This document shows positions 43,866-64,000 of a stretch of 64,000 bases of DNA, piece after piece. A model generated the notes under the pieces. The model was not told where the DNA came from and searched no databases. It was given only the letters and a program-made list of their open reading frames with translations. Numbering within the stretch: position 1 is the stretch's first letter; each line of letters begins with the position of its first letter. The position numbers and the translations under genes are program-made. The stretch comes from Cymbomonas tetramitiformis (lineage: Eukaryota > Chlorophyta > Pyramimonadophyceae > Pyramimonadales > Pyramimonadaceae), in contig LGRX02035295.1 of the NCBI GenBank assembly GCA_001247695.2, forward strand, positions 38,599-102,598, given 5' to 3'.

Positions 43866-44636
43866 GGCTGATCCTCCTGCTGAACGGGCGATGACGGAGA
43901 TGTGCCCTTTAGCACCCAGATAAGTTCACCCTTGTCATCCAGGATCAACTTTAATCCCTGTCTCTTCAGCCTCCGAGCTTCAGCCTGTTCCTCCGGATCG
44001 TCAGCTACCAGGTCATCAAACTCGCTGACGTCATCCTCAGTGTCATCAGAGTCATAATCGACAGGCGTGTCATACTCCCATTTCGGACTGGCAGTGTCAG
44101 TGGCATTCTTGATGTCAGTAGCACCCGTGCCATCGTCGTCATCAGAATCTGACAGCTTCTCCTTACTCCAAGCCACAACACTTGCACCCGAATCGTCACT
44201 GTTCGTAGGCGTCGATTTCTTCGGACGACCAGTGTATGGAGTACCACGATACTCGTCAGTCTCAGTCGAATACTTCCAAGAACGAGCATTACTGATCGGT
44301 AATGAGAATGACGCTACTGGCTCTTTCGCTCGAGTGGCGTCTTCCAGATACCAGCCACCACCTCTCTTACGTTCCCAGCGGCGTAGCGCTCCAGAAGACA
44401 TAACAATAATATGTTGCCAGCAAGAGTCGATCTTATGCGCTATATCTCCACAGTACGCAGTAAATGGTTCTGGGGTCCCGTTCGGTACCGCATTTCCATC
44501 GAGCTGCCCCAGTGGTGGATAGAAATACAATCTGCCAATTGCACGGCTTAGATGTACCACTGACCCCTGGCACAACTCCTCCCCTCTTAGCTTGGCAGTA
44601 CCATGATGGGAGAACTCAGCGTCAAGTGTACAGCAA

Positions 44637-44919
44637 CTAAGATCCAGATACAGGACGGGCATGCGTAGGTATGCGTGCTATGCTTTTCTGATCGAACAAA
44701 TGCTCGAAGAGATGACGAAGCAGTCCAGCGGGCAGAGGGTATACGGCCGCGGAGACTCCAGCTCCTTGTTGCCCAGGATGAGGTCCCAGTTGAGCAGTTT
44801 CCGGATGAGATCTCAAGGTCTGTTGGTGGAGACAAGGAGTATCCATCGTACAGTATCGTAGGTCAACTCGGGGAGGTGACCGCGTCCAGATGCAGGTAGG
44901 CTTGCGGTGTCTAGTGCCA
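44637..44919 (-). pseudogene. C5-cytosine methyltransferase, C-terminal part
   Basis: Continuation of the methyltransferase at 46655-47329 across a TA-flanked element. It starts YGTRHRKPTCIWTRSPP, resembling the YG...KPT-x-IW segment that follows the ENP motif in small C5 methyltransferases. It ends with a helix YPLPAGLLRHLFEHL, as in the C-terminal motif X region, and a TAG stop. Confidence 0.7.
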
Positions 44920-45245
44920 TACACCCCTGGCATTGTTGGTTTGGTAACTAATTAAATCGAGGGGTGTCTTGTCGTAAAAAAAAACAGAAACAGAAGCAAA
45001 GCACAAAGTTAATTAATTATTGTTTTCGGCGACATGTTTACAAACAAACAATAGTTAATGAATTAATTCCAGAGTGTCTCACTCGGAGCTAGCTCAAACA
45101 AACAGAACTTAACAAATTAAATGTCGCCCCAATATGTTATAGCATGGCAAAACACACAGTCCATAATAAATTAAAATTTCGGGGCAAATATTACTTCCTA
45201 TTTGGAGCTCTCGAATCATCAACATACCCGAGTGGCACATACATC

Positions 45246-46099
45246 TTGTCTATTGGGCGCACCTTACGGTGGGTTTACCCACCGTAAGAGACATTCGAAA
45301 ACCGCATGTTAGAGCTAGCATATTGTGCCAACTTGGGCAAACCCATGCTTTTCGACACACCTTGGGGGTTATATTAGTGCGTGGACTTGAAAAAAGTACT
45401 TTACATACTGTATAGATGCGTCTAATATGCGTGCTAATACCAAGGGGTCAAGCGAAAAAACACCTCAAATCCTTACGGTGGGTTACCCAATTATTGCATC
45501 TTTGGGTAGATTTTGAACATGCCCATCACATTCGGAATGTACCTATCACAACATTTTCATGAACTATGGCCCATAACAAATGTTTCTTATACTTGGCGCC
45601 ATTCGATATATCGAATATATCACTCTACACAAGTAACTTAAGAAAAAAAAACAAAAAACATTTGCAATTTCAATGTGTTTCCATACTTAAGGGCAAAAAT
45701 GACGATATTTTGTCTATACGGGGATATATATGCATGTTTCTCGCGAAGTATTGACTCAAGGTGGTAAAAATATATCAAACTTCACGAAATACACCCATGC
45801 GCACATTGGCATCGTGGATGAAACGTAGAAATCGGGCCACGTTTGTGTGCATTTGGGATCACGGCACCGAACGTGCCATCGGAGGTATATTGGGATGGAT
45901 ACCGCGGATATATCCGATCACAAGTACATGTCATTCGGCTTTGTCCAGCTAAACATGAATGTCTAGTTGTGAAATCACATATGATCGACCATATTTGAGA
46001 CCATTCGATGTGCATTATGGTGTTAACAAACTACGCTATGGTTAACCCACCGTAAGGCGTTCTTACGGTGGGTTACCCCACCTTGAGCCCAATAGACAA
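45246..46099. mobile_element. Nested MITE with CTTACGGTGGGT palindromes
   Basis: The inverted ends TTGTCTATTGGGC (45246-45258) and GCCCAATAGACAA (46087-46099) are followed by CTTACGGTGGG-TTTA-CCCACCGTAAG-type palindromes at both ends (45263 and 46040-46075), with another copy at 45472. I could not define a clear target duplication. Confidence 0.65.
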
Positions 46100-46154
46100 T
46101 CTAGTTATCATTCTGCGGCATTATTTCGGGCACGATTGGCTCTCATGTACCTTG

Positions 46155-46376
46155 TCAGATATGCATGCAACTCCAACGCTTGCTCCCTTGGAATACAACC
46201 CATGGAGTCATCTTCATTATCAATGGTGACAGTCTATTAGCGATCTCGAACCGAAATGAATATTCATCTTTGCGACCAGCCACGCACACCATGAACTCTT
46301 TGGTGTCCTCCTTCCCAAAATCCTCCAGTGAGAACTCTTGTTCACCATCCATGTAATCCAATCCAATTCGATCCAA
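46155..46376 (-). CDS. Small acidic ORF in the 1.7-kb TA element
   Basis: About 73 codons starting MDRIGLDYMDGEQEFSLEDF, with no family recognised. It lies between the nested MITE and the right TIR. The internal beta-like text GKEDTKEFMVCVAGRKDEYS is compatible with a real protein fragment. Confidence 0.3.
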   Translation of the reverse strand: MDRIGLDYMDGEQEFSLEDFGKEDTKEFMVCVAGRKDEYSFRFEIANRLSPLIMKMTPWVVFQGSKRWSCMHI

Positions 46377-46654
46377 TCACAAACAATCTTCAAATAATTA
46401 ATTAAATATAGCAAGCCACACGGCGTTCTCCGCACAAAACAAACAATATATATCTATATAATCCGCATGTCGTGCTCAAGTTTCGGGCACAAACAAACAA
46501 TGACGGGAATAAATTATGCCTCGGGCCTAATCCACGTCACGCGCAAACAAACAATGCAGATAATTAATTAAGTCACCCCCTCGATCGTTTGCTACCCCTA
46601 ATGCTTTATGACAACCCGAAAACCGACTAACAAAACAACAATGCCAGGGGTGTA

Positions 46655-47329
46655 CATGCAATAGGAGCAATATAACGGAGTGGGTAAACTGCGGACTACT
46701 GGTCGAAATCGCAGCGCGAAGGGAAACCTGCCCATCGGATTTTCCATAAACCAATGCTTGGGCTTGAGGTAGTCAAGGATTTCGTTGAAGTGTACGGCGT
46801 ACACAGGCATTAGCCTGTCGCAGCTGTCACACCCTAGTAGTCTTGGCTTGAGACTGTATTCCGTGCAAGGCGGGCTAGCCCAGATGACGTCAAAGTAACC
46901 AGGCGTGTAACGCTTAAAATCCCGATATTGTACCTTCTCAGCGTAAGTAGGTTGCCAGCGAAGATCTTGATCCACTGTGACCACCGAGCTGTTCGGGTAG
47001 CAGGAAAGGAAACTCCTCTCCACACTACTAATGCCACTGAAAAGTACCAGCAGGCGCAGCTCGCGAGGAGATATCACAGAGTCCAGGAGGGCCAGATGCG
47101 TCACAAAGGCGTCAGAACAGCGACAGTACTGCTCCCAAGGTAGAAGTTGTCCAAAGAATTCAGGTCCACTTCTCCAGAGGTGTCCAGAAAAGTCAAAGTC
47201 CTGGCGTGTTCCCGCTTCTGCTTCCGCTGCCTTCTGACCTCCTGTGAAGCTTTGAATTCTCGCGAGTTTGCCCTTCACGTGAAAGTCGCAGTTGCTCAAA
47301 CTCGGTGAGCTGCTCGAGTTCACCCCCAT
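46655..47329 (-). pseudogene. C5-cytosine DNA methyltransferase domain, N-terminal catalytic part
   Basis: Motifs in order: LLVLFSGISSVERSF (motif I, SAM site), VVTVDQDLRW (motif II acidic residue), FDVIWASPPCTEYS (motif IV, with the catalytic Pro-Cys), and KHWFMENPMGRF (motif VI, ENP). The domain is cut at 46654 by a TA-flanked element and continues at 44919. Known C5 enzymes transfer methyl from SAM to cytosine C5. It directly follows the integrase and chromodomain on the same strand. Retrotransposon-borne C5 methyltransferases were reported by de Mendoza and colleagues (2018) in algae and dinoflagellates. Several frameshifts nearby suggest the copy is dead. Confidence 0.82.
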
Positions 47330-47333
47330 AGTT

Positions 47334-47600
47334 TTACGACTCTCGAGTCTTCCAGGAATCGTGTGCGTTGGAGTACCCCGTCCAGCGAACCAGAAATTCG
47401 TCTACTTCGTTTCCTCCGCGAGTAGGCTTCTTCACTCTTCGGGCCAGAATCTTGGACACATGGGTCTGGGTCTGCCCATCCACGAGCACCTTGGCAGGTG
47501 TATGCATTTGCTGGCGCAGCGCGAAAGCCTCTTCTGCAGTGCGGTATTCCTTGAGACGATGCTGCGCGAAGACGTCATGGATACGCCATTTCGGTGGCAA
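47334..47600 (-). pseudogene. Integrase C-terminal tail and chromodomain
   Basis: LPPKWRIHDVFAQHRLKEY is the usual end of the integrase GPY/F region. It is followed by a chromodomain, VSKILARRVKKP...EVDEFLVRWTGYSNAHDSW, with the aromatic W...Y...W core. Known chromodomains steer chromovirus integration to methylated histones. The next helical tail (ELEQLTEFEQLR) is in another frame, so a frameshift lies near 47340. Confidence 0.85.
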
Positions 47601-47956
47601 CTTGAGCCGATAACTGTGCCAATCTCCGGCAGCTCCCTCTGCTGATCACTGAAGAACCTCTCGATGATGGGTAAGGGCCCGTGCCAGCGAGGTCCCAGCT
47701 TCCTGAATGATTCGCGGTTCATGATGTTCTCGGTGAGGTGCTTAGCATCCACCCAGACCAAGAAGTCTCCCAGCTGAAAGGATTTGGCAGTATGACGCTG
47801 GTCAAACTGATGTCGCTGGCGTTGCTGCGCAAGTTCCAGTTTAGTGCGGGCGTCCTCCAGCTGGGCCGCAAATTTACTAGTCATTTCATGCGCGGTACCT
47901 TCTCCGCCCTTGCGCTTGGAGTGCTGCCCCGTAGCGGCTTGGAGAAAGAGGTCCAC
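47432..47956 (-). pseudogene. Integrase linker and GPY/F module
   Basis: Helical linker (AAQLEDARTKLELAQQRQRH), then the GDFLVWVDAKHL barrel strand and KLGPRWHGPLPIIERF, the GPY/F motif of Ty3/gypsy integrases. It is in a different frame from both the catalytic core upstream and the chromodomain downstream. Confidence 0.8.
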
Positions 47957-48810
47957 AGCTGTGACATGGGGGAGTGTCCCAGAACCAACTCGAAAGGGGT
48001 GAAACCAGTCACAACACTTCGCGTATCATTGATGGCGAACTCGGCGTTAGCGCACCACAAATCCCAGTCCTCGGGATTGTTGCCCGCAAAGGATCGCAGC
48101 ATGTCTTTTACCACTCTGTTGGTATGTTCTGCTTGTCCGTCAGAACGAGGGTTGTAAGGCGTGGTGGAAGCCACGTTGGTTCCCATAAGTCTCATCAGCT
48201 CCTTCCACATAGCGTCCTGAAAACGTGGATCTCGGTCGGAGACAATCTTCATGGGGGCACCGTGCAGCTTCCAGATGCGGTCGAAGTAGATTCGAGCGAT
48301 CACTTCTGCGGAACTATCCTGGAAGTTCAGGGGGGTGATATGAACCATTTTGCTGAGCTTGCAGGTGAAGGTGGCGAAAGCATCGTGGTTTCGCGCCGTG
48401 ACTGGGAGCCCAGTGACAAAGCCCACGCTGACCACTTGCCACAGCCGCGTGGGAATTCTGTGGGGCAATCCATCTGGGAAGGAGTTCCTCGGTCGCACCG
48501 CTTGACAGATCATGCAAGAGGAAATCCAGCGCCCCACATCCTCAGCTGCTCCTTTCCACCAGAAGCGTCGCAGTACTCGTTCCAGAGGCTTGTCCCTTCC
48601 AGCATACATGTCCAGCCGAGACAGACGCGTGGGCTTCCTGCAGCACCACTTCCCGAAGAGGCGAATCGTCTCCCAGTACCAACTGATAGCGTCCCGCGCT
48701 GACCCTCCACAAGACCTTTCCCACCACACAGAGGTCCCGGGTGCGTTGGTGAGGAGCTTCCTGGATTTCCGTCATCAAAGTCTGCATGCAGTGGACCAGA
48801 TCGCCCATAC
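47881..48810 (-). pseudogene. Ty3/gypsy integrase, zinc-binding and catalytic core
   Basis: The zinc region is split over two frames near 48610: LREVVLQEAHASVSAGH in one, then RRFWWKGAAEDVGRWISSCM with the C-x2-C (CMIC) in the other. The rve core shows VSDRDPRF (second Asp) and YNPRSDGQAEHTNR (Glu). The first Asp is missing: the strand reads VVSVGFVTGLP where the family has VDFVTGLP, so the DDE triad is broken. Known role: joining cDNA ends to target DNA. Same strand and order as RNase H (62.1-63.2 kb) and the chromodomain. Confidence 0.88.
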
Positions 48811-48879
48811 TCCGCTTGCAGGGCTTTAAGGAACTGGTCTCCAGAAATCTGGTGGTTGAGGTCCCGGACGCTGGCCGCC

Positions 48880-49190
48880 TCTCCGGTGCGCACGATGGGG
48901 GGAGGTGAACTCGTTCGCCGTTCTCGCTTGACGCGCTGCTGCGCTAGAGGAGCGTATACCACCAGCAGGGGCCATGGAAGATCCAGTAGGGTTCTATCTG
49001 GTGCTGCGAACATCTGCACTGGTTCTCCTTGAGCGTCGTGAGTAGGTATGATATACTCCACTCTCATTCCAGCTGATATGAACAACTGTCGTCATTGAGG
49101 CATGCGGGACTGGAAGTCAGGAAGGATAAACGGGGCTGAGGTATTTTCGGGGTCCAGTGGCCACTGCCCGGAAGTCCTTGTGGTAGGACC
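48880..49190 (-). pseudogene. Dam-type methyltransferase domain, C-terminal part
   Basis: Minus-strand segments ILPDFQSRMPQ and LFISAGMRVEYIIPTHDAQG, then QMFAAPDRT, resemble the end of the phage/retroelement Dam-type domain (a strand pair followed by an LF-T/A-AP motif). An in-frame TGA separates the two pieces. It lies upstream of the integrase in coding order and would continue the domain at 62112-62350, from which it is separated by a CACTA transposon and a 1.5-kb insert. Confidence 0.55.
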
Positions 49191-50744
49191 AGAAACGCGC
49201 GTAGTCCTATGACAAGGACCACCGTTTCACGATTTTTTCGGGCCGTCAGATAGCCTCAAGAGGTCGTATCCCATGAGCTCATGACTATTTAGCACCTATA
49301 TATTGGTTGGGTGGGGGTGGTTAAGTCAGAAATTGCTATATATATCGCGTTTGAATGCAACAAAGTCAGGCACCTGATGAAAATCTTGGTTGCTTATTTT
49401 CACATATTCAAAAAGGTGCTTAAAATGGTACCCTTACTTCATGATTTTTTACCAATAGCATTTGGACTAAGAGCCACCTGGGCCGCATTCTTATCGCAAC
49501 TATAACTCCATACTAATGATAGTTGGGCCTTGATACGAGGTGGAATTATTCTATATACTCTCAAAATGGCTTCAGCGTTACCCTACACCCAGAAAAACAT
49601 TTTTGATCCAAGAGGTAGAAAATGTTTTTTGTGCTCTTACATAATATGAATAATATGAATAACCTGGTGATAGGTGATATGTGTTATCCGGAATGGGCTC
49701 AAATGATATTATCTTTTACTTAACATATAAATTGATTTTTCAAAAGCTCAATGTTGAGCATATGAAACATATCATGATAGTTATGCATCATTTTAGATGG
49801 GCAACCCTGACTTTTTAGGAGTGGAAAATGCAGTTTTCCTAGGAAAGTCTTACCCGTGCATCCGTGTGAGCGTTGAGGTGTTGTGCGCATGCCCCCATAA
49901 TCCACATGATGGCATTAAACTTTCATTTCGGTCATAAACTTGCACGATATAATTTCCTAGCCCCATCATATTTGATCTAGAAGGTTACACATGCCTCGGA
50001 CACGGTGCTCCTTGTGGTAGGACCACCGACGTTTTGACGATTTTAGCAAAAACACCCTCCTACATGCACACGATTAACAGTGCCCAACTAGACGCGACGA
50101 CACCTACCCTATCATTTAGGAAATTGACTTGACACATACATAACATATGAAAACAGTAGGTTGACCACTTTGAGTATACCATGGGTTCATACAGTAATCA
50201 CTCGCCTTTAAGAAAACCGTAGATTCCAGGTCAGCCAGCTTTTCTCATCGAGTTGGGTACTCCCCCCCGCCGGCGCTATGAGAACGCTATGGATAGTGGA
50301 CCGCGATCTCGTGAGCCAGCCAGCGAATTTCATAACCATCCACGTGGACGCCTTCCCGAGCCAGCCCGTTTTCTCAAGGTGTCCAATTTCCGAGAAAATG
50401 GACCCTGAGAGCCGTGCGCAGCTTAAAGAAATTAAAGCAGGATTTAGATGATGTCATTTTTATCTCTGAAACAGACTATCAGGAACTTAAACCTTTAAGA
50501 CAAGTTGTGTGCAAAAAATCATGAAAAACCATCAAATATACCATATTTGTCAATTTCCCAGCAAAGTTTTATTAGTTTAAGAAATGCCTCTCCAGCTAGG
50601 CAGCCAGCAGCCATTTCCCTTATTTCATGCCATCTCATAAGTCGGAAAATCCAGCCAGCTTTTCTCATCGAGTTGGGCTCCTTAACGTCGAGTTTCCTTA
50701 ACGGTAAGTGATTACTGTAATACGCATTGTACGGTGGTCCTTGT
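49172..50744. mobile_element. 1.5-kb insertion bounded by a 16-base direct repeat
   Basis: GTCCTTGTGGTAGGAC occurs at both borders (49172-49187 and near 50737). A third copy at 50009 lies beside ACCACCG...TTTGACGATTTT, which resembles CCACCGTTTCACGATTTTTT at 49217. The borders are therefore repeats, but their type (target duplication or element ends) is not clear. Only short ORFs inside. Confidence 0.45.
50192..50717. mobile_element. pogo/Tc1-like MITE
   Basis: The inverted ends CAGTAATCACTCGCCTTTAAG and CTTAAC-GGTAAGTGATTACTG are flanked by TA on both sides. AGCCAGCTTTTCTCATCGAG is a direct repeat near both ends (50234, 50655). CAGTAATC-starting TIRs with a TA target are typical of pogo-type elements. 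No transposase. Confidence 0.7.
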
Positions 50745-50799
50745 GGTAGGACTGTGAATTTGGGTAGTAGCCACCCCCTACAAATTATTGCCCCATTCA

Positions 50800-51950
50800 T
50801 CCGTGTGGATTTGCATATGGACAGCGTATGGACATCGCAAGGACCCATATGGACAACCGTATGGACGGTCTGGACAGATTTCTGGCGAAACCTTGATGCA
50901 TATGTAAGAACCATACGGACGACGCGTAATTGTGGTGTCCATATGAAAATGTCCCATGGACACCGTAAGGATTTCGTATGGACACCGTATGGACGGCCGT
51001 GTGGACACCGTATGGACAGAACACATGTCCACATGGTGTCCATACGCATGGACAGAGGCACTATCCAACCGCACGACAGCGCAGGGACACCGTATGGAAA
51101 CCCGTATGGATAACATATGGACGTCGTAACCGGACGTGCGGACAACGTATGGACTACCGTAAGGACAGCGTATGGATAGCGTATGAACATCACAGTCGCA
51201 CGTGCGGACACCGTATGTAATGCCGCAAGGACGGCATATGGACGGCGCATGGACATCGTAAACGTGCGTGCGGACGGCATATGGACTCCCATAAGGACAA
51301 CGTATGGACGTCGCATGGACATCGTAACCGGACGTGCGGACAACGTATGGACCACCGTAAGGACAGCGTATGGATAGCGCATGGACCTCATAATCGCACG
51401 TGCGGACACCGTATGTAATCCCGTAAGGACGGCATATGGACGACGCATGGACATCGTAAACGTGCGTGCGGACGGTATATGGACTCCCATATGGACAACG
51501 TATGGACGACGCATGGACATCATAATCGCACGTACGGACATCGTATGGACCACCGTAAGGACAGCGTATGGATAGCGCATGGACATTATAATCGCACGTG
51601 CGGACACCGTATGTAAATCCGTAAGGATGGCATATGGACGACGCATGGACATCGTAAACGTGCGTGCGGACGGCATATGTACTCCCATATGGACAACGTA
51701 TGGACGACGCATGTACATCATAATCACACGTACGGACACCGTGTAGACTACCGTATGGACATCGTAAACGTGCGTGCGGACGGCATATGGACACCCATAA
51801 GGACGGTCAATAATAGATAGTCCACACGCATGGACATCGGTGTCCGTACGTGTGGATAGCTTGTGTTTATAGATATCAATGCGTATGGACGATGCAGTCC
51901 ACGCGTACGGACATCGGTGTCCGTGCGCGTGGATAGCTTGTGATACACAA
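50800..51950. repeat. Left subterminal array of the CACTA element
   Basis: Dozens of CGTATGGAC / CGTAAGGAC / GTGCGGAC motifs, mostly in one orientation, organised into about 198-bp higher-order repeats (for example ACCGTAAGGACAGCGTATGG near 51153, 51354 and 51554). Because the period is divisible by three, long spurious ORFs arise. Confidence 0.9.
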
Positions 51951-52013
51951 AATATTTACAAGGTACAGGGATACACAAAATGTTTACAAAATGTTTACAA
52001 AATGTTTTCTAGC

Positions 52014-54304
52014 CTAGCTTTTCGACTTCTTTGCTGGCTTTTCACCTTCTTCCTTTTTTCTGTCAACGTTTCTCTTCTTTGGAATTTGGAATTTGGAATT
52101 GGGAGCGGAACCGCCCTTAACCTTCTCATCCTTCTTCCCATCCTTCTTGTCCTCCTCCTCCTCCTCAGAGGTGGTTTGCTCCTCGTCCTCGTCCTTCTTG
52201 TCGACGCCCTCGCCCCTCTCCTCATCCTCCACAGTCTCTCCGTCATTAGCAGCGGCGGGATCCTCGACAGCCTCAACAACAGCATCATTAGCATCACCAT
52301 CGGCCGCGTTCTCCTCTTCAACTTCCGATTCTTGTGCATCTTGCTTCTGACACCCCCGCACGTCCTGGAACCAGTGACGGCTCGTTCCTCTCGTATGGAA
52401 CTGCAAGTGAATGCAACCTAAGTAAGTGCATTAAGAGCAACGACAACAATTGACAAGCTAAATGCCACTAGAACAATACAAGCAAACACACCGTGACGGG
52501 GGGGTATCCACGGTCCCGTTCCGATACCTCAGCAGGCTCCAACTTCAGGCCGGCCAGTTTTCTCGCTGTCAGCCTCTCGGGATACAGCTTCTCCGTGTTG
52601 GCGTGCCTCAAGTAGGCCTTGTGTATCCTGCGTACATAAACCACTTGTTAGACGGCGTCCTTACGTATGTACACCGTCTTCCACCCGTATGGACGGCACA
52701 ATAAATGGTGTCCACGCGTATGGACAGCAAAACAACACCACGCACACATGTACACATGGACGTTCGCGTAAGTGCAAAAGGTAAAAATGTGAACGTTGCA
52801 GGGGAAGGCAGGGAGGGAGGGAGGACTTGCCAGATAACATTTTTTCTTACTATAACTGACTGGAGGTTGTGCTCCAGCATCTCCATCGTTTTATTAGCCG
52901 TCCCGGTGCGGAGTTGCTCGGCACTCACGAGCTCGTCCACCATCGACATGTGGTGGGAAAGAATCCGCTCCACGGGGTAAACCTCCCCCTTATCTGGGAG
53001 GTGAACGACGAATTCAACGTACAGCTCGTAGGTATCTTTGGGCAAAATCATTGGTTTCTCGTTCAATGAATTTCCCGGCCCGATGGCGGCGACGGTAGCC
53101 CGACCAATGACAAGGTTCGGGAGGCCAGATTTGGTGGCCTTTCCGGTGTCGTAACCGGTACCGATACGACCCACGTCCGCCTGGGGGGTGGCGAAGACGT
53201 CCACCTGGTCCCCTACGGCCAAGGGGCCCCCGAGGTTGGGGGAGTGCTTCTCTGCCTGCGGGACCGGCTCTTCGGGGACCGTCTGTTGAGGCGCTTCCAC
53301 CTGGACACCGTGCGGACGACGTGTGGACTAAGTCGTTCGTACGGGCGACACACGCGTGGAAACATATAAGAAAAACAGTGAAGAACTGGCGCTCACTGGC
53401 CAAAACGTACACCCCTGTGGACAACGTGCAAACTACGTGGTTCATAAGGGTGGAAACAATCAAGCGGCACAAGTTGAAAAAAGGTTCACATAACCACGAG
53501 CTTGGACACCGTTGCACAACGTGTGGACACCGGCGCTCACAGGCGGAAGAGCACAAAAGTTACCTTTACTTCCGGTTTCTTTTCAGGGGCTTCAGGGGCT
53601 TTGGCACCAAGCGCTGTGAAGATCTCAAAGTGCTTCCCTTCAGTGAGTGGCTTGCCAGCAGCAATTGCCAGAGCCACCTGCAGGCACGCCTCTGTCTCCT
53701 CCGGGTCCGGCGCATCCCTGTGCCCGTATACCTTGTACCCGGCCGCTGGACCCTTGTACCGGATGTGAAAACCGTCGGGGAAGTCCTGGGTGACCTTCCA
53801 CTTCCAGCGACCGGGCCCCTCCGAGTTATTTTTCAAATAACTCAACCGGTTGGTGACGTATGTTTTCACCATCCGCAAGGGCACCTGCGGGTGGCGGGAC
53901 TGGATATGCTTGGCGATTTTGGTGTGCTTGGCCGCCCCAATGACGGCGACCGTCCCAGGGGGTATCAGGCCTTTTTCCTGCCAGTCGTCGATGACCTCCC
54001 GGGCGTCTTCCTTCATGTCATTTAAGACTTGGGCGCCCGGGTCCACCACCAACCGCGCTGTATTTGCGGCCTGCGCAGCCTCTGCAGGTTGCGCTGCACC
54101 CCCTGCCCCGGCAGCCCCTGCAAACAGCAGCATTTGCTGCTGCATGCTTTGCATCTGCTGAAACATCTGCTGCATGGTGGTGTTTGACGCGGCCGCCTCC
54201 ACCAAGCTGGTTTGGCGACGCTGGTTTGGCGAGGGAGTGGGGGCGGTGGGTGGCGATTTCGGGATCTGTGCGCGTTGTCTACTGGGCTGAACTCGTCTGG
54301 CCAT
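52014..54304 (-). CDS. CACTA second protein (putative TnpA-like DNA-binding factor)
   Basis: Spliced minus-strand gene. Exon 1 runs 54304-53564: MARRVQPSRQRAQIPKSPPT, a Met/Gln coiled-coil-like MQQMFQQMQSMQQQM, then a folded part with VIDDWQEKGLIPPGTVAVIG and RWKWKVTQDFPDGFHIRYKG. Exon 2 runs about 53300-52851: a beta-rich VGDQVDVFATP...LVIGRATVAAIGP and helix VERILSHHMSMVDELVSAEQ. A short exon lies near 52628-52530 (AYLRHANTEKLYPERL). The last exon (about 52385-52014) has an acidic Glu/Asp stretch and a basic KKPAKKSKS-like end, a likely nuclear signal. Some phases were not resolved. The function is inferred from position only: the second gene of CACTA elements binds subterminal repeats. Intron sequences carry the same GTCC-type motif. 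Confidence 0.6.
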
Positions 54305-55960
54305 GTTGGGAACTTACGAAACAAAATTTGCGAGGAGGTTCGTTTGCTGGAGGACTGTGGGCGTTTGTGGGCGTTTTGGCGGCGATGGGATGAAAACGGT
54401 ACTCACGGGCGTGGACAGCGCTGACTTCGTGGCGTTCATCCGTACAGTACGGGCATGAACGTATGGACGTTTGACCGTTGAGCTGGTGCATGAGATAGCA
54501 TCTTTTGAAAATGCATGTCTCAATTTCTTTTTTCTCATTGAAATTGGTATCAGAGTCCTCTCTGTAGGGAAACGCGGTTTTATGAATATAATTTTTGCCG
54601 TGCGGCGGTTTTTCATCATCGTGGGTGCATGGCCGAGTGGTCAAATGTTGGTAAGCCGAACGCGTTCTCGCGAGGGTGAGGGGTTCGAATCCCCTTGGAG
54701 GCATTGGCATCCACGATACCCCTTGTGTTCTAGCGATAAGAGGCGCCGCTAGTGCACAAGGGGTGTCGTGGGTGCCAACCCACGCCTCCATGCCATTTTC
54801 AGTTTCTGTAACTCATGGAGACCGTCCGATTAAGACGGGGGGGTTCATCTGGGCCGTCGATTGCACTGTCCGCTGGGAAACAATCCCACTGAGTGCCTGT
54901 TCTGGGGTAAATCGCAAGCAGCGAGAGGGCGCCTAACCCCCCTCTCACTTTGTTTTTTTTGTCCCCACGCTCCGATTTTAGCCCTCCATCGACCTTTTTT
55001 AGGGGTGTTTTGTTTTTTGCCATTTTTTCGCTAAGTATTTCTACCCAAATGTCCACACGTGTGGTAAAGTGTGCTGTCCGTACGTTGTCCATACGGTTTT
55101 TATGTTTTTAGTTTCCGTGAGGTCAGCTTTTTTTTGCGTCCGTGCGTGTAAAAAAACCGTCCATGGGACATGAATCATACGGACAATCAAGGCTAACTCG
55201 AATGGACAGCGTATGGACTGCTAACTGACGTTTCCACGCGTGTGGACAGTTTTCAACAAAAAACGTACAAACACTATAGAGTCGTACGAAAACACGTAAT
55301 TCACCGTGTGCTTTTGCTATCCATCCATGCGGACTGCTCAAAATGTGTGGTTATTTCAAGGTATGGCTTACGCGAGGTCGAGTTTGCACAAAACTTCTGA
55401 TTTTCTAGATCGTGAGATATAAGCGATTTAAGTATCCGCTTAAGTATGTTTAAGTATGGGAGATAACTGAGCGGTATCGAGCATAACTTTTCAATGCCTG
55501 GGTCAATTGTATACCCGGAGCGCGCAATATGTTAAGATTGCTTTGAGCGACAGGTTTATCGAATAAAAATATTTTCGGAAGTTTTGTGTAAAGTCGACCT
55601 CGCGTAAGCCATACCTTGATTTCCAACCACATGGACAGACCGTCCATGGGACATGCAGACGTACGAAAAATGTGCCATTTCATACGAAATTCGTACAAAA
55701 CCCACATGGACAGCTAACTGACGTTTCCACGCGTGTGGACAACCGATCTCATGGAACCGTATGGACTAGAATGCTTGCGGCATCCACACGGACAACACAT
55801 AGCGTCCATCCATAATCTAACGTGTGGACGACGAGTTTACAACCTTGACGTAAGTGTTGGTGCATGCGCGCAGATGTGACATGGAACGTATGAACATCGT
55901 TGTCCATACGCTGGAAACCTAAGCCGGGCGTACGGACACCGTACGGACGACGCACGGACG
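54305..55960. promoter_or_regulatory. Intergenic region between the divergent CACTA genes
   Basis: Holds the tRNA-like unit, a hairpin at 54695-54790, and a lower density of GTCCACACG/GTCCATACG motifs from 55050 on. A direct repeat with inverted flanks (ATGGCTTACGCGAGGTCGA at 55363 and its complement at 55592) may be another small insert. It should contain both promoters. Confidence 0.45.
54622..54716 (+). tRNA. tRNA-Ser/Leu-like sequence (pseudo-tRNA or SINE head)
   Basis: A perfect A box TGGCCGAGTGG and B box GGTTCGAATCC with a T-arm GGGG-TTCGAAT-CCCC, spaced as in a class II tRNA with a long variable arm. The acceptor stem does not pair in the normal register, and no clean anticodon arm forms. 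Instead ATCGTGGGTGC pairs with GCATCCACGAT further out. It is followed by an inverted repeat (GGAGGCATTGGCATCCACGA...CCCACGCCTCC). It may act as a pol III promoter. Confidence 0.45.
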
Positions 55961-55967
55961 ACCAAAT

Positions 55968-58900
55968 ATGCCATTTTGTCCCTGCGTTGAATGCAATGGT
56001 GAAAGGTGGTTATCCAGTAAGCAAACTCTCCGGCACGTGCGTGCCAATGGACTTCATGGTGATCGATCGCCGTCACCAGAGCGACAACAAGATGAGGAGG
56101 AGACACAAGAACGCAGTGATGAGGAGGAATTCCCAGAAGATGTTGCCATCCACGAGGCAGCAAATGCGACGATCGAAAAAATCAATCGGCTCTTCTTGGG
56201 ACCTCAAGAGGACCCAAGCGCAGAGGTAGGTCCTCCTTATCAGCTAAGTCAGCAATTCAGCATTCATCACATTCATGTGTTCTTTGAGGATGTGTGTGTG
56301 TGTGTGTGTGAGCAGGAAAGTGTAGAAAACGTCCAAGCGTCCGCTAACGTCGTGGCGAACAATTTCGTGTTGGATCTTCTCGTCTCCCACAACCACCACA
56401 ACAGCTCGCAGGCCTACTTCGATGCGATTCTGAACATTCTGCGTGTTCACTACATCGACAATGTAGCCGATAGTGCACATACTCTTATCGCAGAGGTTCC
56501 ATCTACATATGCACAGGTGATGCAGAAGTGGAAGGAGATGTTCAAGGGATACAACGAAGTGGACGTTTGCCCCGAGTGCTCCGAATTCTTTCAGGACGAG
56601 CACGCCAACTGCGACAAGTGTCCGACATGCCTGGAACCGAGATACGAGGACGGAAAGACGGTGAACGGGGTATACATTCCAGGTCGAGCTCGCTGTATTT
56701 TTCGATGGTGGCCGCTCGAAACGCTGTTCACCGTATTCTTCCTGACGCCGGAGTTAGCCATGCTAGCGCGTACGTGGTGGAAAGAAGGCATGTTGGACAA
56801 AGACCCCCGAGCGGAAATACATGGTATACTCGGTGAGTTTACTCCGAAATTTCAATCCATGACTGTGTACACCGCATGGACGTAAGGGCAGTACGTCGTC
56901 CGTAGGTACGATTGGCATCGTCCGCCCGTGTGGACAAAGCAAGTGCGGAATTCGTATGTCGTATTTCCCACTGCTCGTGCAAGCTCGTCCATGTAGGTGA
57001 ACACCATATGGATGGTATGCACGTACGCCGTCCGTACGCACGGACAATGTTACCCACCCATGTGAACAGTTTAATTGCGGAAATCTTAGGTCTCATTTCC
57101 CAGAGCTCGTGTAAACCTGTCCATGACTGTGAACACCGCATGGACAATACGTTCATTCGTTGTCCGTACGTGTGTAAGTAGTTATCCACCCGTGTGGACA
57201 GTGAGTGTAAGGAATTCTTATGTATCGTTTCCCAATGCTCGTGCAGACTCGCCAGGATTTCTCAACTTCGTTCGCAACAAGTGGGACATATTTAAAGACC
57301 CGAGGAACATTGCCATTATGGCGTGTGCAGATGGCGTCCAATCCTTCAACGACGGCATTCGCACGGTGACTCCGCTGTGTTTTACGATTGTCAACTTCCC
57401 GGGAGAAATTCGCTGCAAACGAGAATACGTGATGACTTGGGGAATCTGGGATGGAAAACCGAAAGTCATCAGCAGCAAGTTCTACGACATGTTCACCTTG
57501 GAGGTTAACAGACTGACTAACGGCGTACGCGTGTTCGATGTGATTACCAACACGGTTTTCACGTTCAAGCTCGTGCTGTACAAAATGCTCGAAGATTACA
57601 TTGGCTTGAGCGACGCGGCGAGACGATTCGGAGCTAATTCGTACTACGCTTGCCTGAAATGCTGGATCCGGGGTACCGAGAAATCTACAACTGGTCTAAC
57701 GAAAATCATATATTCCTCACTACACCAAGGACTGCAACCAGGTAAACGCATGACCCCGTCGCTTGTCCCCTTTCCTTCTTCGGCCGTACGTACGGAGTAT
57801 GTGTGCCCACCGTGTGGACACCCCACGGACAGCTCGTGGATTTTAGCTTAAATTATGTGTTAAAGAACACCCTGTCCGGGCTTGTGGATACCGGCGTCCG
57901 CACGCGTGGACGCCTGGAGTCCGATGTGTTCCGTACGCGTGATTCACCGTCTAAGCGTGTCGTGTTGATTTTCGCCGTCATTGAGCAGGTGAACCAATCC
58001 CTTTTCGCACCAACAGCGAAGTCCGTGAAACCCAACAGCTCCACGCCAAGATGATCAGAGAGGGACGAGTGCCTAAACAAATCGTCGAGGAATTCATGAA
58101 GCAGAGCGGGGTTAAGGAACCATGCCCGATGTCAATCATTCCTGATTTTGACGTTGTACGGGACTACCTTCTCGACCTGATGCACATCTTGTACAACCTG
58201 ATTCACGGCGTCCACTGCGTGATTTTTGGTGATGGTTGGGGACCGAACACACGCAACTATGCGCGGAAGATGAAGGTCCATCGATCGTGGGTTATCGCAC
58301 CCCCACCCAGAAATGTAAACGATCGAAGATCTGCTGCGAAGCGACTGGCAGGTAAGCTTGTAGGTCGTTTGCGAGTTTCTGCTGTTCCACACGGGTGAAC
58401 ACCGTGTTGCCGCCGGACGGACGGCGCATGTAACCGTACGGACGACGTATGGACCATCCACTGTATGCCTAACAATGTAAAGTCTTTGCAGACAAACCAT
58501 CACCGTGGGGACTGTCACCGATCGCAAAGACCGGTGCAATCAAGTGGGTACGAGGTCTGAAGCTCGCGACAAATATGGGACCTCTAGCTAAGAAACTTCT
58601 GCAGGAAAAGTACAAGAACCCGAAAAAGGTGCGGAAGATGAAGGCCGCGGAGCTGGTGGTATCCCTCACTTCTGGGATACTGGGCGTTATTGCATCCTGG
58701 CAAAATGCTGACGGGCAAGTTCTCCGACCACAATACGCGAGGTTCGTTGGTGAATTTTCGGTGGTGGTTCGAGAATTAACCGCCCCCTCAATTCATCCAG
58801 AGGTACGTTAAGCCTAATCAACCCGTGTGCTTCCGTGTGGATGTTCTCGGACACCGTACGGACGCCGCACGGACGGCGTATGAAGCCGTTGTCCATCCGG

Positions 58901-60621
58901 TTGTTCCTCCACCATTCACACCTGGCATGTCCCGGTTCGAGATTAAGGTTGCCTCTCATTATTTTGCCTTTCAGGAAATGAACAAGCTGCAGAGCCGAGT
59001 CATGCAGTTGAGAGATGAGATGGAGCGGAACAACTCCCCTGAGGCGTTGGTGATTATGTCGCATCTTCTCGTGCACATTGTCGACCAGCTGAAGGACAAC
59101 GGCCCTGCACGGGAAATCTGGATGTATGTCTTCGAAGACTATTTCGGGTTGTTGAAGCTGTCCATCAAGACCCGCTCACAACCCGTCGCCAGCATGATGA
59201 AAGGACTGGAGTTGCGGCGAACGGTTTCCATGGTTGCTGGCATCAAGCGAATGCATCGAAGTGGTCAAGCTCCCCAGTATCGACCTCCTGCAAAGCAGAA
59301 CATCTTTACAACGAAATCAAGCACTGTGCGGCCAACCGCTGGTGAGCACATCCCTAAGTATCATGTGTGCCATGCATGTTAGTCTTTCCATGCGTGTGGA
59401 TGCTTTTTAAGTACGTGTGCACGTAGTCGTTCACACGTGTGGCCAGCGATCCATACGCACGGACGGTACTTTACTATTGTCCGTTTGGTCAATACCACCT
59501 GTCCAAGCGCGTGGACGAAGAGCCCACCGTGCGGACGACGTCGTCCACATGTGTGGAATACCTGTCCGTACGTACGGATGAGTTTTCACTATTGTCCGTT
59601 TTTTTTTCTCTTCAGTCTTCTTATGAGACAACTAATTCGCTTGCGCGGCGTCAATCGCAACAGATGACAGAGAAAAGATTCAAGTCTACCTTCGTACCGA
59701 GTTCCCCGAGTACGACACTCTGTGCAAAAAGTTCGACGACACACTCGACTCATTCAACAGGTACCAACTTATGTGCATGTCTGTAAATTGTGCGAACGCC
59801 ACGTGGACGGCGTACGGACGGCGTACGGCCACCGTATGACAACGTACGGAACATTGAGTCCACCCGTGTGTACTTGCGAATGCAGGAACGTTGGACAACG
59901 GAATCGTCGCAACCGACGGGCGGGTCGTCGAAGGCCGATGACGAATGACGTGGTTCCGGTGTTTCTACAACCAGACACGTGGAGAAGGTGCCCAAGAACT
60001 TTGCAGATTCAGCCTTTCACCGAGGAGGAGCAGACCTTCGCCTTGGCCGGGATCGCCCCGTGGACGGAGTATCCTAGCATCAAGATTGGGCGTGAAGATT
60101 TTCGAGTGCACGACAGCGACATTGGTTTGAAGAGTTGTCAACGGTATTTCAAGAGCATCTTTCGAAGTCCGGGAGTGCCAACTCCAGCTCAACTTCTTAC
60201 AGGCGAGATACCGGACGATGACGTTGAAGATAGGTATGGGGAAATCATGAAGCTCGTCAAGCTTGATCTTCCCGGTCACGAGATCTTTCTGTTGAAGGCC
60301 CGTTGGTACCCAAAGGCGGCTGCGCTTGCGGACGATATCAGCAAGAACATTTACCTGCGCAAAGACATGCCATGGGACGTGTCTCAGCCATTCGTTCGCG
60401 CAAACAGCATTGAGAATCAAGTGGTAATTCAGGATGTTCCTTTCATGCCGGCTTGGCTTGCCCGGTACAAAGGAAATGTTGTCCCTTTGGCCATTCGACG
60501 ACGAACTGATTGCTTGCAAGTTGTGTTGGATCGCAAGGCGGATTTCTTCCGTGAAATCGATGATAACAGTAGTAGCGAGGATGACCGTAGTAGTTCATCT
60601 GATTCAGATGATTGCGGATGA
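55968..60621 (+). CDS. CACTA (En/Spm) Tnp2-type transposase, 8 exons
   Basis: Exons about 55968-56224, 56314-56832, 57247-57741, about 57990-58351, 58491-58801, 58976-59340, 59614-59760 and 59884-60621, with GT...AG borders. Exon 1 has the N-terminal zinc-like CPCVECNGERW...TLRHVRANG of Tnp2. Exon 2 has CPECSEFF...CDKCPTCLEPRY and PLETLFTVFFL. Exon 3 has the core DPRNIAIMACADGVQSFNDG, ...MTWGIWDGKP and ACLKCW. Exon 6 matches the DUF4218-like part (IMSHLLVHIVDQLKDNGP, MYVFEDYFGLLK). Exon 8 ends with a Ser/Asp tail. It catalyses excision and insertion through a DDE-type core. The exon 3/exon 4 junction is not in a clean phase, so a frameshift or other splice site is possible. Introns contain GTCCRTACG motifs. 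Confidence 0.82.
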
Positions 60622-60659
60622 TACACGATGTATTATATATGCAAATAAACCGTATGTGC

Positions 60660-62093
60660 GCGGACACCTGTATTCACACGCATGATTCCGCTAATCCATA
60701 CGGGTAAACCCTTATCCACACGCGCGGATGTATGTGTCCACACGCGTGTTTCAACAAACTCCAATTTTGACGTCCATACGTATGGATTGGCGAATTCCGA
60801 TCGTCCATACGTCTGTCCACACGTCGTCCGTACGCATGAGTTCGTTCGTTGACACGCCCCCGTGGTGCCCATATATGGCTGATGAAGGGGCAAGCAACGC
60901 TCGGGCACACCCAGGCCCGGGTGCAATGGCTGTCCACACGTGCGGACAAGCGCAAACGAGTGGCACGGCACGGGCCTCACACTGTCCATACGCCCGTCCA
61001 CACGTCGTTCGTACGCGTCGGTACGACCCAGGGACACGCCCCCATGGTGTCCATGTGGCTGATGAAGGGGAAGGAAATGCTTGGGTACACCCAGGCCTGG
61101 GTGCAATGGGTGTCCACACGTGCGGACAAGCGCAAACGAGTGGCACGGCACGGGCCTCACACTGTCCATACGCCCGTCCACACGTCGTCCGTACGCGTCG
61201 GTACGACCCAGGGACACGCCCCCATGGTGTCCATGTGGCTGATGAAGGGGAAGGAAATGCTCGGGTACACCCAGGCCCGGGTGCAATGGCTGTCCACACG
61301 TGCGGACAAGCGCAAACGAGTGGCACGGCACGGGCCTCACACTGTCCATACGCCCGTCCACACGTCGTCCGTACGCGTCGGTACGGTCCAGGGACACGTC
61401 CCCATGGTGTCCATGTGGCTGATGAAGGGGAAGGAAATGCTCGGGTACACCCAGGCCTGGGTGCAATGGGTGTCCACACGTGCGGACAAGCGCAAAAGAG
61501 TGGCACGGCACGGGCCTCACACTGTCCATACGCCCGTCCACACGTCGTCCGTACGCATCAGTACGTCCAGGGACACGTCCACATGGTGTCCACATGGCTG
61601 AGGAGGGGGCAAGCAGTGCTCGGGTACACCCAGGCCCGGGTGCAATGGCTGTCCACACGTGCGGACAAGCGCAAAAGAGTGGCACGGCACGGGCCTCACA
61701 CTGTCCATACGCCCGTCCACACGTCGTCCGTACGCGTGGGTACGGTCCAGGGACACGTCCCCATGGTGTCCATATGGCCGAGGAGGGGTAGAAGCGGCAT
61801 TTCTCGCAGTCCGCACGTGTGGACAACATTTTCCAGTGGTTCATGCGTATGGACGGCACCTATCCATACGGTCGGAGCGTCCACACGCGTAATAAAATCA
61901 GGTAAACTAGCATACGTCGTCCACACGGATGCGCACGTACGGACGACGTATGGATTTATCGTATGGACACCGTATGAACATCACTTTTACAAATTAGACA
62001 ATTTCACACGTGTGGATTTAGCAAAAAAAGCTTCCATAGGGTGTCCGTACGCTGTCCACGCGTCGGACGGACGGTTTTCCACGCGTGTAAAAA
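60660..62093. repeat. Right subterminal array of the CACTA element
   Basis: GTCCATACG / GTCCACACG / GTCCGTACG motifs, inverted relative to the left array, with five tandem copies of a 180-bp unit (60.88-61.79 kb; GCTGATGAAGGGG, then GTGCAATGGCTGTCCACACG). The 180-bp period keeps several frames open, so the 612-codon ORF here is not a gene. Confidence 0.9.
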
Positions 62094-62111
62094 GGCCAAT
62101 AATTTGTAGGG

Positions 62112-63177
62112 ACCAGGCGCCATTCTTCCACATACTTCCTCAAGACTGCCTCGATGGTCAGAATGATGGTTGGAAGAGAATGGAGGATTGCACCAGACGT
62201 TTAATCCTCGCCAGTTCTCCTTCAAACAGTCCGTCCAGTAGCGGTTTGCTTGAGGATTCTTCCCTCCCAAGTCACAGCAGGCGTCCAACTCAAAAGGTCC
62301 ATACTTCTGACTCAGAAATTCGAACATGTCAGCGCGGAACTTCCAATTCTGTCTGTCGCTGGGTTCCGGGAGTCTGGTCGAGGCATTGCTTCGCTTCGGA
62401 GCCGCGCCGTCGCTTGCAGGGAGTTTCTCCGCTGGAGAGGGCAAGGAATCCGTCAGCTTGCCAGAACGCGTCCGAACCGCCAGGGTGGTCTCCTCATATC
62501 CAGTTTCTGCCAACTGCAAGGTGTGCATGGCGTCCAACCAGAGCTGAGGGGAGTCCAACCAGGTGAGAGCTCCAGTATACGCGAGGACTGAATCAGGTTC
62601 TTTTTCCTTCGCGTTGGGGGGCTTGCGCTCCTTCAATTTGTTGGGAGCCACTACTCCCAGCGGGGCTCGTCCTTGGCGGGACTCCTTGTCAGCCGCAGGT
62701 CTGAACTTGCTGACAGTCTTAGCAGCAGAAGAAGATGGTCGTTGCGCCTTCCCGGTAACCGGATGCACAAAGCCTGCTTCCACCAGTCCTTCTCTCGCGG
62801 AGATATCCTTGCAGTCAGGTCGCCGCGACAGAGCGTCTGGAACCCAAAGTAGAGCTCCAGGGATGTACTCCATTTCGGGTACCCCTACTTCCACTAGATC
62901 CATGTAACCTCGCGCCTGGCGTCGACTGAGGGGTTGCCCAGGAGCCATTTTTAGCCAGACTAGTGGTTTATGATCGCCTTGCAGTTGGAACTCGGTCCAG
63001 ATGAGGTAGTGTCGCCAGGTTTGCGTGTTGCAGTGATGGAGAGCGCAGAGTTCTCTTTCGCCAGCATGGTAGTTCCGCTCGGCTCCATTAAACTGTCTGC
63101 TTTCAAAGGCGATCGGCTGCAGTCCATTTCCCACGTCTTGCATCAGTACGCCCCACAGCGCCACTCCACTGGCGCCT
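62112..63177 (-). pseudogene. Ty3/gypsy RNase H and Dam-type (N6-adenine) methyltransferase domain
   Basis: Coding order on minus. The RNase H part starts inside the domain (ASGVALWGVLMQDVGNGLQP) with YHAGERELCALHH, GDHKPLVWL and DALSRR. A Lys/Pro-rich linker follows. Then comes a domain with FELDACCDLGGKNPQANRYW and LNVWCNPPFSS: the FELDA start and NPPF catalytic motif are those of the Dam-type phage N6-adenine methyltransferases. A likely +1 shift follows NPPF, since the next helix (TIEAVLRKYVEEWRLVP) is in another frame. The domain is then broken by the CACTA element. The reverse transcriptase upstream is lost behind a second CACTA-like insertion at 63178. Confidence 0.8.
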
Positions 63178-64000
63178 CCCTACCAAATAGGGACGGGTCC
63201 ATGTGATTCATAAATCACATGGACCCCGCATGGACCTCACGTGGACCCCCGTGGACTTGGAATGGACCTCGCATGCCCCAAATGGTCAGACATTTCTCCC
63301 TAGGGGTCCATATGGGTCCACTGAAGGTCCATGTGGGGTCCATACGGTTTTCAGTCACATGGACCTCACATGGACCCTCCCTACGGGTCCATGTGGGGTC
63401 CATGTGATACCTCTTAGTGTGTACGTAGCATGTGGACCCGACATGGACCGGTGAGGGCCACATGGGTCCGATGGTCAGACATTCCTACGGGTCCATGCGA
63501 CGCATGGACCCCACATGGACCCCGCATGGACCGGTAGGTACAATCACATGGACTTCACGGGGACCACTCAGTTATCATCACATGGACCCCACATGGACCG
63601 GTGAGGGCCACATGGGTCCGATGGTCAGACATTCCTACGGGTCCATGCGACGCATGGACCTCGCATGGACCCGTAGGGAATGCATCACATGGACCCAGCA
63701 TGGACCCCCCCCCACCCCCGTTTGGGCGCTCGCTCGATGGGTTCATATGATTACTCGGCAGGTCCATGTGGTATTTAGGCGGGTCCAAGCGATAATCTAG
63801 CGGGTCCGTGTGAGTATTAAGCGGGTCCGTATGATTATCCGGCGGGTCCACGTGGGCATTAAGCGGGTCCATGTGATTAGTATGTGGGTCTATGCGATTA
63901 TTCTGCGGGTCCATGTGATTATTTTGTGGGTCCATACGATTCTTCGGCGGGTCCATGTGGGTATTAAGCGGGTCCATGCGTTTGTAAAACGGGTCCATGT
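63178..64000. mobile_element. Second CACTA-like transposon, left end only
   Basis: Begins CCCTACCAAATAGGGACG, resembling the TIR of the first element (CCCTACAAATTATTG). It is followed by a dense array of CATGGACC/GGTCCATG motifs, including 24-bp tandem units (GCGGGTCCATGTGATTATTC) at 63765-64000. It is inserted in the RNase H domain. The other end lies outside the window. CCT before 63178 may be the target duplication. Confidence 0.65.

What the first reader, a model, noticed from the sequence alone, without database searches (positions are those of the whole stretch)
44637..63177. Chromovirus that appears to carry both an adenine- and a cytosine-type DNA methyltransferase
Read along the minus strand and ignoring later insertions, one Ty3/gypsy element shows RNase H, a Dam-type domain with NPPF, integrase, chromodomain and a C5 methyltransferase with SPPC and ENP. 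Retrotransposons with a C5 enzyme are known; I do not know of one with an N6-adenine domain as well. Together with the chromodomain, this would let an element both read and write chromatin marks at its own or its target DNA. All pieces are on one strand, in order, and separated only by inserts with defined ends.
Basis: partly seen in the sequence, partly recalled or inferred. Interest (0 to 1): 0.93.

Follow-up and report, generated by a model that had tools for sequence, protein, structure and literature searches.

The report
Retrotransposon with two DNA methyltransferases
The window holds the broken remains of a jumping gene whose intact relatives, common in the same algal genome, carry in one protein an adenine-type and a cytosine-type DNA-methylating enzyme plus a chromatin-binding domain, a combination I did not find described.

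Summary
On the minus strand (44,697-63,173) lie collinear pieces of one Ty3/gypsy pol: RNase H, Dam (PF05869, E 1.1e-9), integrase, chromodomain (9.8e-8) and a C5 methyltransferase (motifs present; Pfam score below cut-off). The copy is dead: a 12.9-kb composite stretch splits Dam, a 1.7-kb TIR element splits C5, and no RT is seen before the contig ends. Relatives settle the question. The same 852-Mb genome, almost certainly Cymbomonas tetramitiformis, has uninterrupted ORFs encoding PR-RT-RH-Dam-INT-chromodomain-C5. Between two capped lists of 150 hits, 60 Dam-C5 pairs sit 2.0-3.2 kb apart and 37 of these share one open-frame length. One copy has near-identical LTRs and a 5-bp TSD. Of 57 database proteins found by either domain, 39 carry both. 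The C5 catalytic Cys is kept in 42 of 42, Dam NPP[YF] in 37 of 45. Both enzymes resemble phage ones. A second gypsy lineage in the genome pairs a different C5 enzyme with a PHD finger and another putative methyltransferase. C5 in Gypsy and Dam in DIRS are published; I found no report of both in one element. Activity is untested.

The parts
62505..63173 (-). RNase H and following linker of Pol
   Evidence: PF17917 5e-19; tblastn to L031 residues 975-1158, 51%
62102..62507 (-). Dam-type methyltransferase, N-terminal part with NPPF
   Evidence: PF05869 1.1e-9 over cut-off; PHROG 111 8.7e-12; tblastn pieces to L031 1359-1500
49167..62101 (.). 12.9-kb composite stretch that splits Dam: tnp2/DUF4218 transposon on the + strand, tandem repeats, other ORFs
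   Evidence: Transposase_21 1.6e-9 and DUF4218 1.5e-10; repeats; no clear flanking duplication
48789..49166 (-). Dam C-terminal part and spacer before integrase
   Evidence: tblastn to L031 1493-1618, 52%; to P0010 87%
47956..48787 (-). Integrase: H2C2 zinc-binding and core domain, with a frame change near 48605
   Evidence: PF17921 2.2e-9, PF00665 2.9e-4; tblastn 62% and 74% to L031
47624..48004 (-). Integrase C-terminal / SH3-like part
   Evidence: tblastn to L031 1880-2005, 56%; SH3_Tf2-1 weak, 9.3e-4
47238..47642 (-). Chromodomain region
   Evidence: PF00385 9.8e-8 over cut-off; tblastn to L031 2004-2136
46652..47170 (-). C5 methyltransferase, N-terminal part with SPPC and ENP
   Evidence: PF00145 0.0028, below cut-off; PHROG 363 3.9e-7; 138.6 bits with a profile of retroelement C5 domains
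44922..46652 (.). 1.73-kb inserted element with terminal inverted repeats that splits C5
   Evidence: 17 identical terminal bases, TA on both sides
44697..44921 (-). C5 methyltransferase, C-terminal part
   Evidence: tblastn to L031 2333-2408, 62%
43865..44530 (-). 3' stretch shared with P0010, nature unknown
   Evidence: 57% to P0010 residues 2114-2352; no Pfam match of the ORF 43625-44677

Best explanation
The window holds a decayed copy of a chromodomain LTR retrotransposon (Ty3/gypsy) from a family whose Pol is PR-RT-RNaseH-Dam-INT-chromodomain-C5MT. Shown: the arrangement, its presence in uninterrupted ORFs of other copies in the same genome, conserved catalytic motifs, low dN/dS and phage-type relatives. 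Inferred: both methyltransferases travel with RT and integrase and modify the element's own cDNA before or just after integration. This would give the new copy marks that the host reads as its own or permitted DNA (5mC, and 6mA if the host uses it), or shield it from nucleases, while the chromodomain steers the insertion. I hold the anatomy about 97% secure and the self-methylation mechanism about 45%.
For: Window domains and collinearity. 3 of 3 Pol ORFs scanned with Pfam have the full order, and L030 by local profile. 60 Dam-C5 pairs 2.0-3.2 kb apart, 39 at exactly 2,352 bases, 37 with the same open-frame length. LTRs with 10 mismatches, TCGAC duplication. SPPC 42 of 42, ENP 41 of 42, NPP[YF] 37 of 45. 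dN/dS Dam 0.27, C5 0.11, RT 0.13, INT 0.09. Dam and C5 distances track RT, RNase H and INT, r 0.84-0.92. Phage DNA methyltransferase matches; Dam model pLDDT 89.8 with phage N6-adenine methyltransferase matches. Published precedent: retrotransposon DNMTs methylate CG de novo in yeast and cDNA self-methylation was proposed (PMC5890265; abstract and section 11).
Against: No activity or methylation data. The C5 domain is below the Pfam cut-off in the window and in 3 of 3 scanned copies. 8 of 45 Dam domains have a changed NPP[YF] motif, so Dam may be dispensable in some lineages. dN/dS rests on few substitutions in overlapping pairs. 9 of 44 C5 hits lack Dam at my threshold, so C5 does not need Dam. 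The solved structures nearest to Dam are RNA adenosine methyltransferases.
Confidence: 0.55

Rival explanations
1. The enzymes act in trans rather than on the element's own cDNA: they disturb host silencing or shape the host methylome, or help the host against DNA viruses, as a review speculates.
For: The review proposes antiviral roles for DAM and DCM domains of retrotransposons (PMC6338049, parts 1-2 of 4 read). The Symbiodinium study links retrotransposon DNMTs to genome-wide CG methylation (PMC5890265).
Against: Both domains lie inside Pol beside RT and integrase and co-diverge with them, as expected of a role in the element's own cycle. No host-level data were seen.
Confidence: 0.2
2. The methyltransferases modify RNA (the element's genomic RNA or cap) rather than DNA.
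Confidence: 0.15
3. The domains are kept as binding or structural modules and no longer methylate.
For: 8 of 45 Dam domains have a changed motif; Pfam scores of C5 are low.
Against: The catalytic Cys is kept in 42 of 42 C5 domains and NPP[YF] in 37 of 45 Dam domains; low dN/dS for both.
Confidence: 0.08
4. The two methyltransferases belong to two different elements nested at this locus, so the combination is a chance mosaic of the window.
For: The window copy is in pieces, with large foreign stretches inside.
Against: Undisturbed ORFs elsewhere hold both, and the window pieces follow the same order.
Confidence: 0.02

Closest known systems
KnitGypsy-Dnmt3 of Klebsormidium nitens (PMC5890265; abstract, sections 9 and 11 and passages seen)
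   Same: Ty3/Gypsy element with a C5 methyltransferase inside Pol, under purifying selection.
   Different: Described there as Dnmt3-type and host-derived; no adenine methyltransferase or chromodomain is mentioned in what I read. Here C5 is phage-like and Dam and a chromodomain are present as well.
DIRS1-like retrotransposons (PMC3266345, passages seen; PMC6338049)
   Same: Pol order RT-RNaseH-methyltransferase, with the methyltransferase right after RNase H; described elsewhere as Dam-like.
   Different: Tyrosine recombinase in place of DDE integrase; no C5 enzyme or chromodomain in the passages. The window family has integrase and both enzymes.
SymbioDIRS-Dnmt3 and SymbioLINE-Dnmt (PMC5890265)
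   Same: Retrotransposon with C5 methyltransferase in its coding region.
   Different: DIRS and LINE classes; one methyltransferase type.
Chromoviruses, including the 'Chlamyvir'-related pol reported in Cymbomonas (PMC10675990, passages seen)
   Same: Gypsy pol with a chromodomain after integrase, in the same alga.
   Different: No methyltransferase is mentioned in that paper (0 occurrences of the word).
Phage Dam (PF05869 / PHROG 111) and phage C5 methyltransferases (PHROG 757 / 363)
   Same: Same domains by sequence; Dam 26.5-33.7% and C5 26.9-33.5% identical in the rows listed.
   Different: Single stand-alone genes in the seven annotated phage loci among the eight that I fetched.
Sola1 DNA transposons of Ectocarpus with a ParB plus DNA methyltransferase protein (PMC12477816, passages seen)
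   Same: A mobile element with an N4C/N6A-type methyltransferase; [quoted passage not shown]
   Different: DNA transposon, separate gene, no C5 enzyme mentioned in the passages.

Membership tests
Ty3/gypsy LTR retrotransposon | Pol order PR-RT-RNaseH-INT | tested here: met
   3 of 3 relatives scanned with Pfam. In the window copy RNaseH-INT order only; no PR or RT is seen before the contig end
Ty3/gypsy LTR retrotransposon | LTR pair with TG...CA ends, short target duplication, primer site and purine tract | tested here: met
   One related copy on C3710; not seen for the window copy. The likeness of the primer site to initiator tRNA is recalled
Chromovirus | Chromodomain C-terminal to integrase | tested here: met
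   Window 9.8e-8; 26.8, 26.8 and 25.9 bits against a cut-off of 25.1 in three relatives
Chromovirus | RT within the chromovirus clade | not tested
   No reference chromoviruses were placed on the RT+INT tree
DIRS retrotransposon | Tyrosine recombinase in place of integrase | tested here: not met
   H2C2 and rve integrase found instead in the window and in relatives
PF05869 Dam methyltransferase | Profile score over the curated cut-off | tested here: met
   38.6 bits against 28.1 in the window; 46.5-48.3 bits in three relatives
PF05869 Dam methyltransferase | NPP[YF] catalytic motif and methyltransferase fold | tested here: met
   NPPF in the window; 37 of 45 domains; model pLDDT 89.8 and phage Dam fold matches
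PF05869 Dam methyltransferase | Methylates adenine N6 in DNA | not testable with these tools
   Needs expression or native modification data
C5 cytosine methyltransferase (PF00145) | Profile score over the curated cut-off | tested here: not met
   17.6 bits against 22 in the window, 13.8-16.1 in three relatives; P0016 and a few others carry a precomputed PF00145
C5 cytosine methyltransferase (PF00145) | Catalytic PC in motif IV and ENx in motif VI (motif names recalled) | tested here: met
   SPPC 42 of 42, ENP 41 of 42; annotated phage C5 enzymes match
C5 cytosine methyltransferase (PF00145) | Methylates cytosine C5 in DNA | not testable with these tools
   Needs expression or native modification data

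The most novel reading that the evidence does not exclude
A widespread lineage of chromodomain Gypsy retrotransposons carries a self-contained epigenetic kit, two DNA methyltransferases for two different bases plus a chromatin reader, and marks each new copy with both 6mA and 5mC. A second, distantly related Gypsy lineage in the same alga converged on the same idea with a different C5 enzyme, a PHD finger and a second putative amino-methyltransferase.
Probability: 0.4. Interest if true: 0.92.

Novelty: new variant of a known kind. Interest (0 to 1): 0.78.

Why it matters
Retrotransposons with one DNA methyltransferase are known, and why they keep it is open. An element with an adenine-type and a cytosine-type enzyme, both conserved in step with RT and integrase, makes the question testable: native nanopore signal can show directly whether young copies carry 6mA, 5mC or both. 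Many methyltransferase genes inside mobile elements could also shape the host's methylome, and would mislead counts of DNA methyltransferase genes in algae and in environmental sequence.

Tried and rejected
Chance mosaic of nested elements: rejected by undisturbed ORFs. DIRS nature of the window copy: rejected, integrase is present. Pfam-only reading of C5: too weak, replaced by motifs, a family profile and phage matches. Solved-structure search by sequence: uninformative for Dam (best rows are complex I subunits at E 0.015, taken as chance) and weak for C5 (E 0.18). The C-terminal domain of the second lineage has no convincing Pfam match (best E 0.1); its model is poor (pLDDT 55, pTM 0.59), though most rows of both fold comparisons are titled methyltransferases. 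CpG depletion was slight (0.70-0.81 in pol ORFs, 0.91 in the whole window, 1.06 in eight C5 loci) and went no further. The Dam tree does not resolve whether Gypsy Dam came from DIRS or from phages (several deep supports 0.16-0.46), and the window's Dam piece was dropped from it as too short. A search for flanking duplications of the 12.9-kb gap gave one 7-base match, taken as chance. Of 28 Dam-region hits, 9 have no C5 by profile: eight with Dam inside Pol end 1-501 residues after the last RT/RH/INT hit, where full ones have about 580, so absence is not shown; P0028 has Dam at the N-terminus. A weak PF00145 match at C-terminal window ORFs other than those listed was not looked for.
Full report
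What is in the window. On the minus strand between 63,173 and 44,697 the window encodes, in order, RNase H, a Dam-type methyltransferase, integrase, chromodomain and a C5-type methyltransferase. Dam (PF05869) scores 38.6 bits against a cut-off of 28.1, E 1.1e-9, in the same ORF as RNase H (5e-19). The chromodomain has E 9.8e-8. The C5 domain is weak against Pfam (E 0.0028, below cut-off), but has SPPC and ENP, matches a phage methyltransferase family (PHROG 363, 3.9e-7) and scores 138.6 bits with a profile of retroelement C5 domains that did not include it. tblastn with the Pol of an intact relative, L031, gives ten pieces in order, 46-74% identical. The Cymbomonas protein P0010 gives ten pieces, nine at 69-91% and one at 57%, the last a 3' stretch at 43,865-44,530. 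The copy is dead: a 12.9-kb composite with a tnp2 transposon and repeats splits Dam, a 1.73-kb element with terminal inverted repeats and flanking TA splits C5, some junctions are frameshifted, and no RT is seen before the contig ends at window position 64,000.

Which organism. The own assembly has 851.7 Mb. All organism-named proteins among the hits are from the green alga Cymbomonas tetramitiformis: 18 of 57, 6 of 8. One of them, P0058, is 99% identical to the query region of an own-genome copy. The published estimate is 850 Mb-1.2 Gb (PMC5741210, start of abstract). The identification is an inference.

Undisturbed relatives. The search for PF05869 scored 150 of 7,257 loose candidates; 47 of the 150 lie in open frames of over 1,500 residues, up to 3,110. 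Three Pol ORFs (L028, L029, L031) were scanned with Pfam, and 3 of 3 hold protease, RT, RNase H, Dam, integrase, SH3, chromodomain and C5 in this order, C5 below its cut-off each time (E 0.008, 0.04, 0.008). L030 shows RT-RH-Dam-INT-chromodomain-C5 by local profiles. The C5 search scored 150 of 8,502 loose candidates. Crossing the two capped lists, 64 of 150 Dam rows share contig and strand with a C5 row; 60 have C5 2.0-3.2 kb downstream, 39 at exactly 2,352 bases, and 37 of the 60 have the same open-frame length. The other 4 of 64 lie 4.1-17.6 kb apart. The remaining 86 Dam rows have no C5 row on the same contig and strand; this does not show absence, since L029 is one of them and has C5. Some are DIRS-type: L019 has Dam next to a weak phage-integrase match. 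One related copy (contig C3710) spans about 16.7 kb, with LTRs of 1,325 and 1,366 bases differing by 10 mismatches and two gaps, a TCGAC duplication, TG...CA ends, a purine tract, and TGGTATCAGATG three bases inside the 5' LTR; its likeness to an initiator-tRNA site is recalled.

Conservation. Among C5 domains of at least 80% length, SPPC is kept in 42 of 42 and ENP in 41 of 42. Among Dam domains NPPY/NPPF is kept in 37 of 45; 8 carry changed motifs (four near-identical own copies are in each set). Pooled dN/dS over six pairs of own-genome copies is Dam 0.27, C5 0.11, RT 0.13, RNase H 0.03, INT 0.09, chromodomain 0.14; these are few substitutions in overlapping pairs. In 30 proteins with all five domains, tree distances of Dam and C5 correlate with those of RT, RNase H and INT at r 0.84-0.92 and with each other at 0.82; RT, RNase H and INT among themselves give 0.93-0.95; 0 of 2,000 permutations reach any of these values. 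Shared ancestry alone produces such correlation.

Spread. Two searches of 5.8 billion proteins gave 28 hits for the Dam region and 44 for the C5 region, 57 proteins in all. By profile 39 of 57 carry both enzymes, and 31 of 57 are RT-RH-Dam-INT-chromodomain-C5. P0052 has a precomputed PF05869 that my threshold missed; P0056 is an ankyrin-domain gene model with a C5 fragment. Other orders exist: C5 before RT (P0040, P0047, P0052, P0054, P0057), C5 between RNase H and INT (P0055), Dam after C5 (P0045, P0049), a PHD finger between Dam and INT (P0027, P0042). 9 of the 28 Dam hits lack C5 and 9 of the 44 C5 hits lack Dam at my threshold. 38 of 57 come from JGI, ENA or lgn records without an organism name; that these are environmental is my inference and their hosts are unknown. 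On an RT+INT tree of 53 sequences (five near-duplicates and all proteins with short RT or INT left out) 34 elements form a group in which every member has Dam and 32 of 34 have C5; the node has support 0.19, or 0.889 without P0032. The set was collected by Dam or C5 matches, so it cannot show how many Gypsy elements lack both.

A second lineage. Own-genome ORFs of 2,398 residues (L009-L012) and eight database proteins (P0058-P0065) carry another C5 enzyme between RNase H and INT, a PHD finger after INT, and a C-terminal domain with P[WF]xGTGxI and TSPWF, invariant in the six sequences aligned of eight. By profile 8 of 8 show C5, INT, PHD and this domain; P0059 lacks RT and RNase H. Pfam places C5 over cut-off and PHD in 4 of 4 Pol ORFs scanned. 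The C-terminal model is poor, but most of its matches are titled methyltransferases, N6-adenine types among them. dN/dS is 0.085 for C5 (45 pairs) and 0.066 for the C-terminal domain (6 pairs). The two C5 types did not find each other with phmmer, which suggests separate acquisition.

Literature. C5 in Gypsy (Klebsormidium) and in DIRS and LINE (Symbiodinium) is published (PMC5890265; abstract, sections 9 and 11, passages). A methyltransferase in DIRS1-like elements is published (PMC3266345, passages), and a review lists DAM in DIRS and DCM in Gypsy and DIRS (PMC6338049, parts 1-2 of 4 read). [quoted passage not shown] I found no report of both enzymes in one element in paper searches of an open-access library, judged from listings and the papers above. 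Most subscription papers, preprints and Repbase were out of reach.

How it may work. Pol of LTR elements is packaged with the RNA (established knowledge, recalled), so enzymes fused inside Pol are placed to act on the new cDNA (inference). Two marks would answer two host readers or defences; the chromodomain would choose the site. Action in trans on the host, or on RNA, stays open.

Noticed in passing
L009-L018 (own genome) and P0058-P0065: Second Gypsy lineage with C5 between RNase H and INT, a PHD finger and a C-terminal putative methyltransferase.
   Followed up: partly
L019-L024, L032 (own genome): Dam next to RT and, in L019, a weak phage-integrase match: DIRS-like elements with Dam in the same alga.
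   Followed up: partly
own genome: L007, L008 and places on C8, C6, C2041, C154, C16883: Seven open frames of 383-401 residues with near-full-length PF00145 matches of similar score; possibly another repeated C5 gene.
   Followed up: no
window 1518-6614 and 12535-17659: Direct repeat of 5.1 kb at 96.7% identity; each copy has a 511-aa minus-strand ORF, the one scanned matching TMEM132 fourth domain at 2.6e-12.
   Followed up: no
window 27183-29140 and 40538-42490: Inverted pair of 1.96 kb at 97.2% identity.
   Followed up: no
window 55923-60621 (+): Remains of a tnp2/DUF4218 DNA transposon inside the stretch that splits Dam.
   Followed up: partly
window 51039-51800, 60803-61891, 63717-64000; also the LTR in L028/L035: Tandem arrays with periods of 66, 180 and 21 bases rich in GGAC/GTCC words; the family LTR on C3710 also holds internal repeats.
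   Followed up: no
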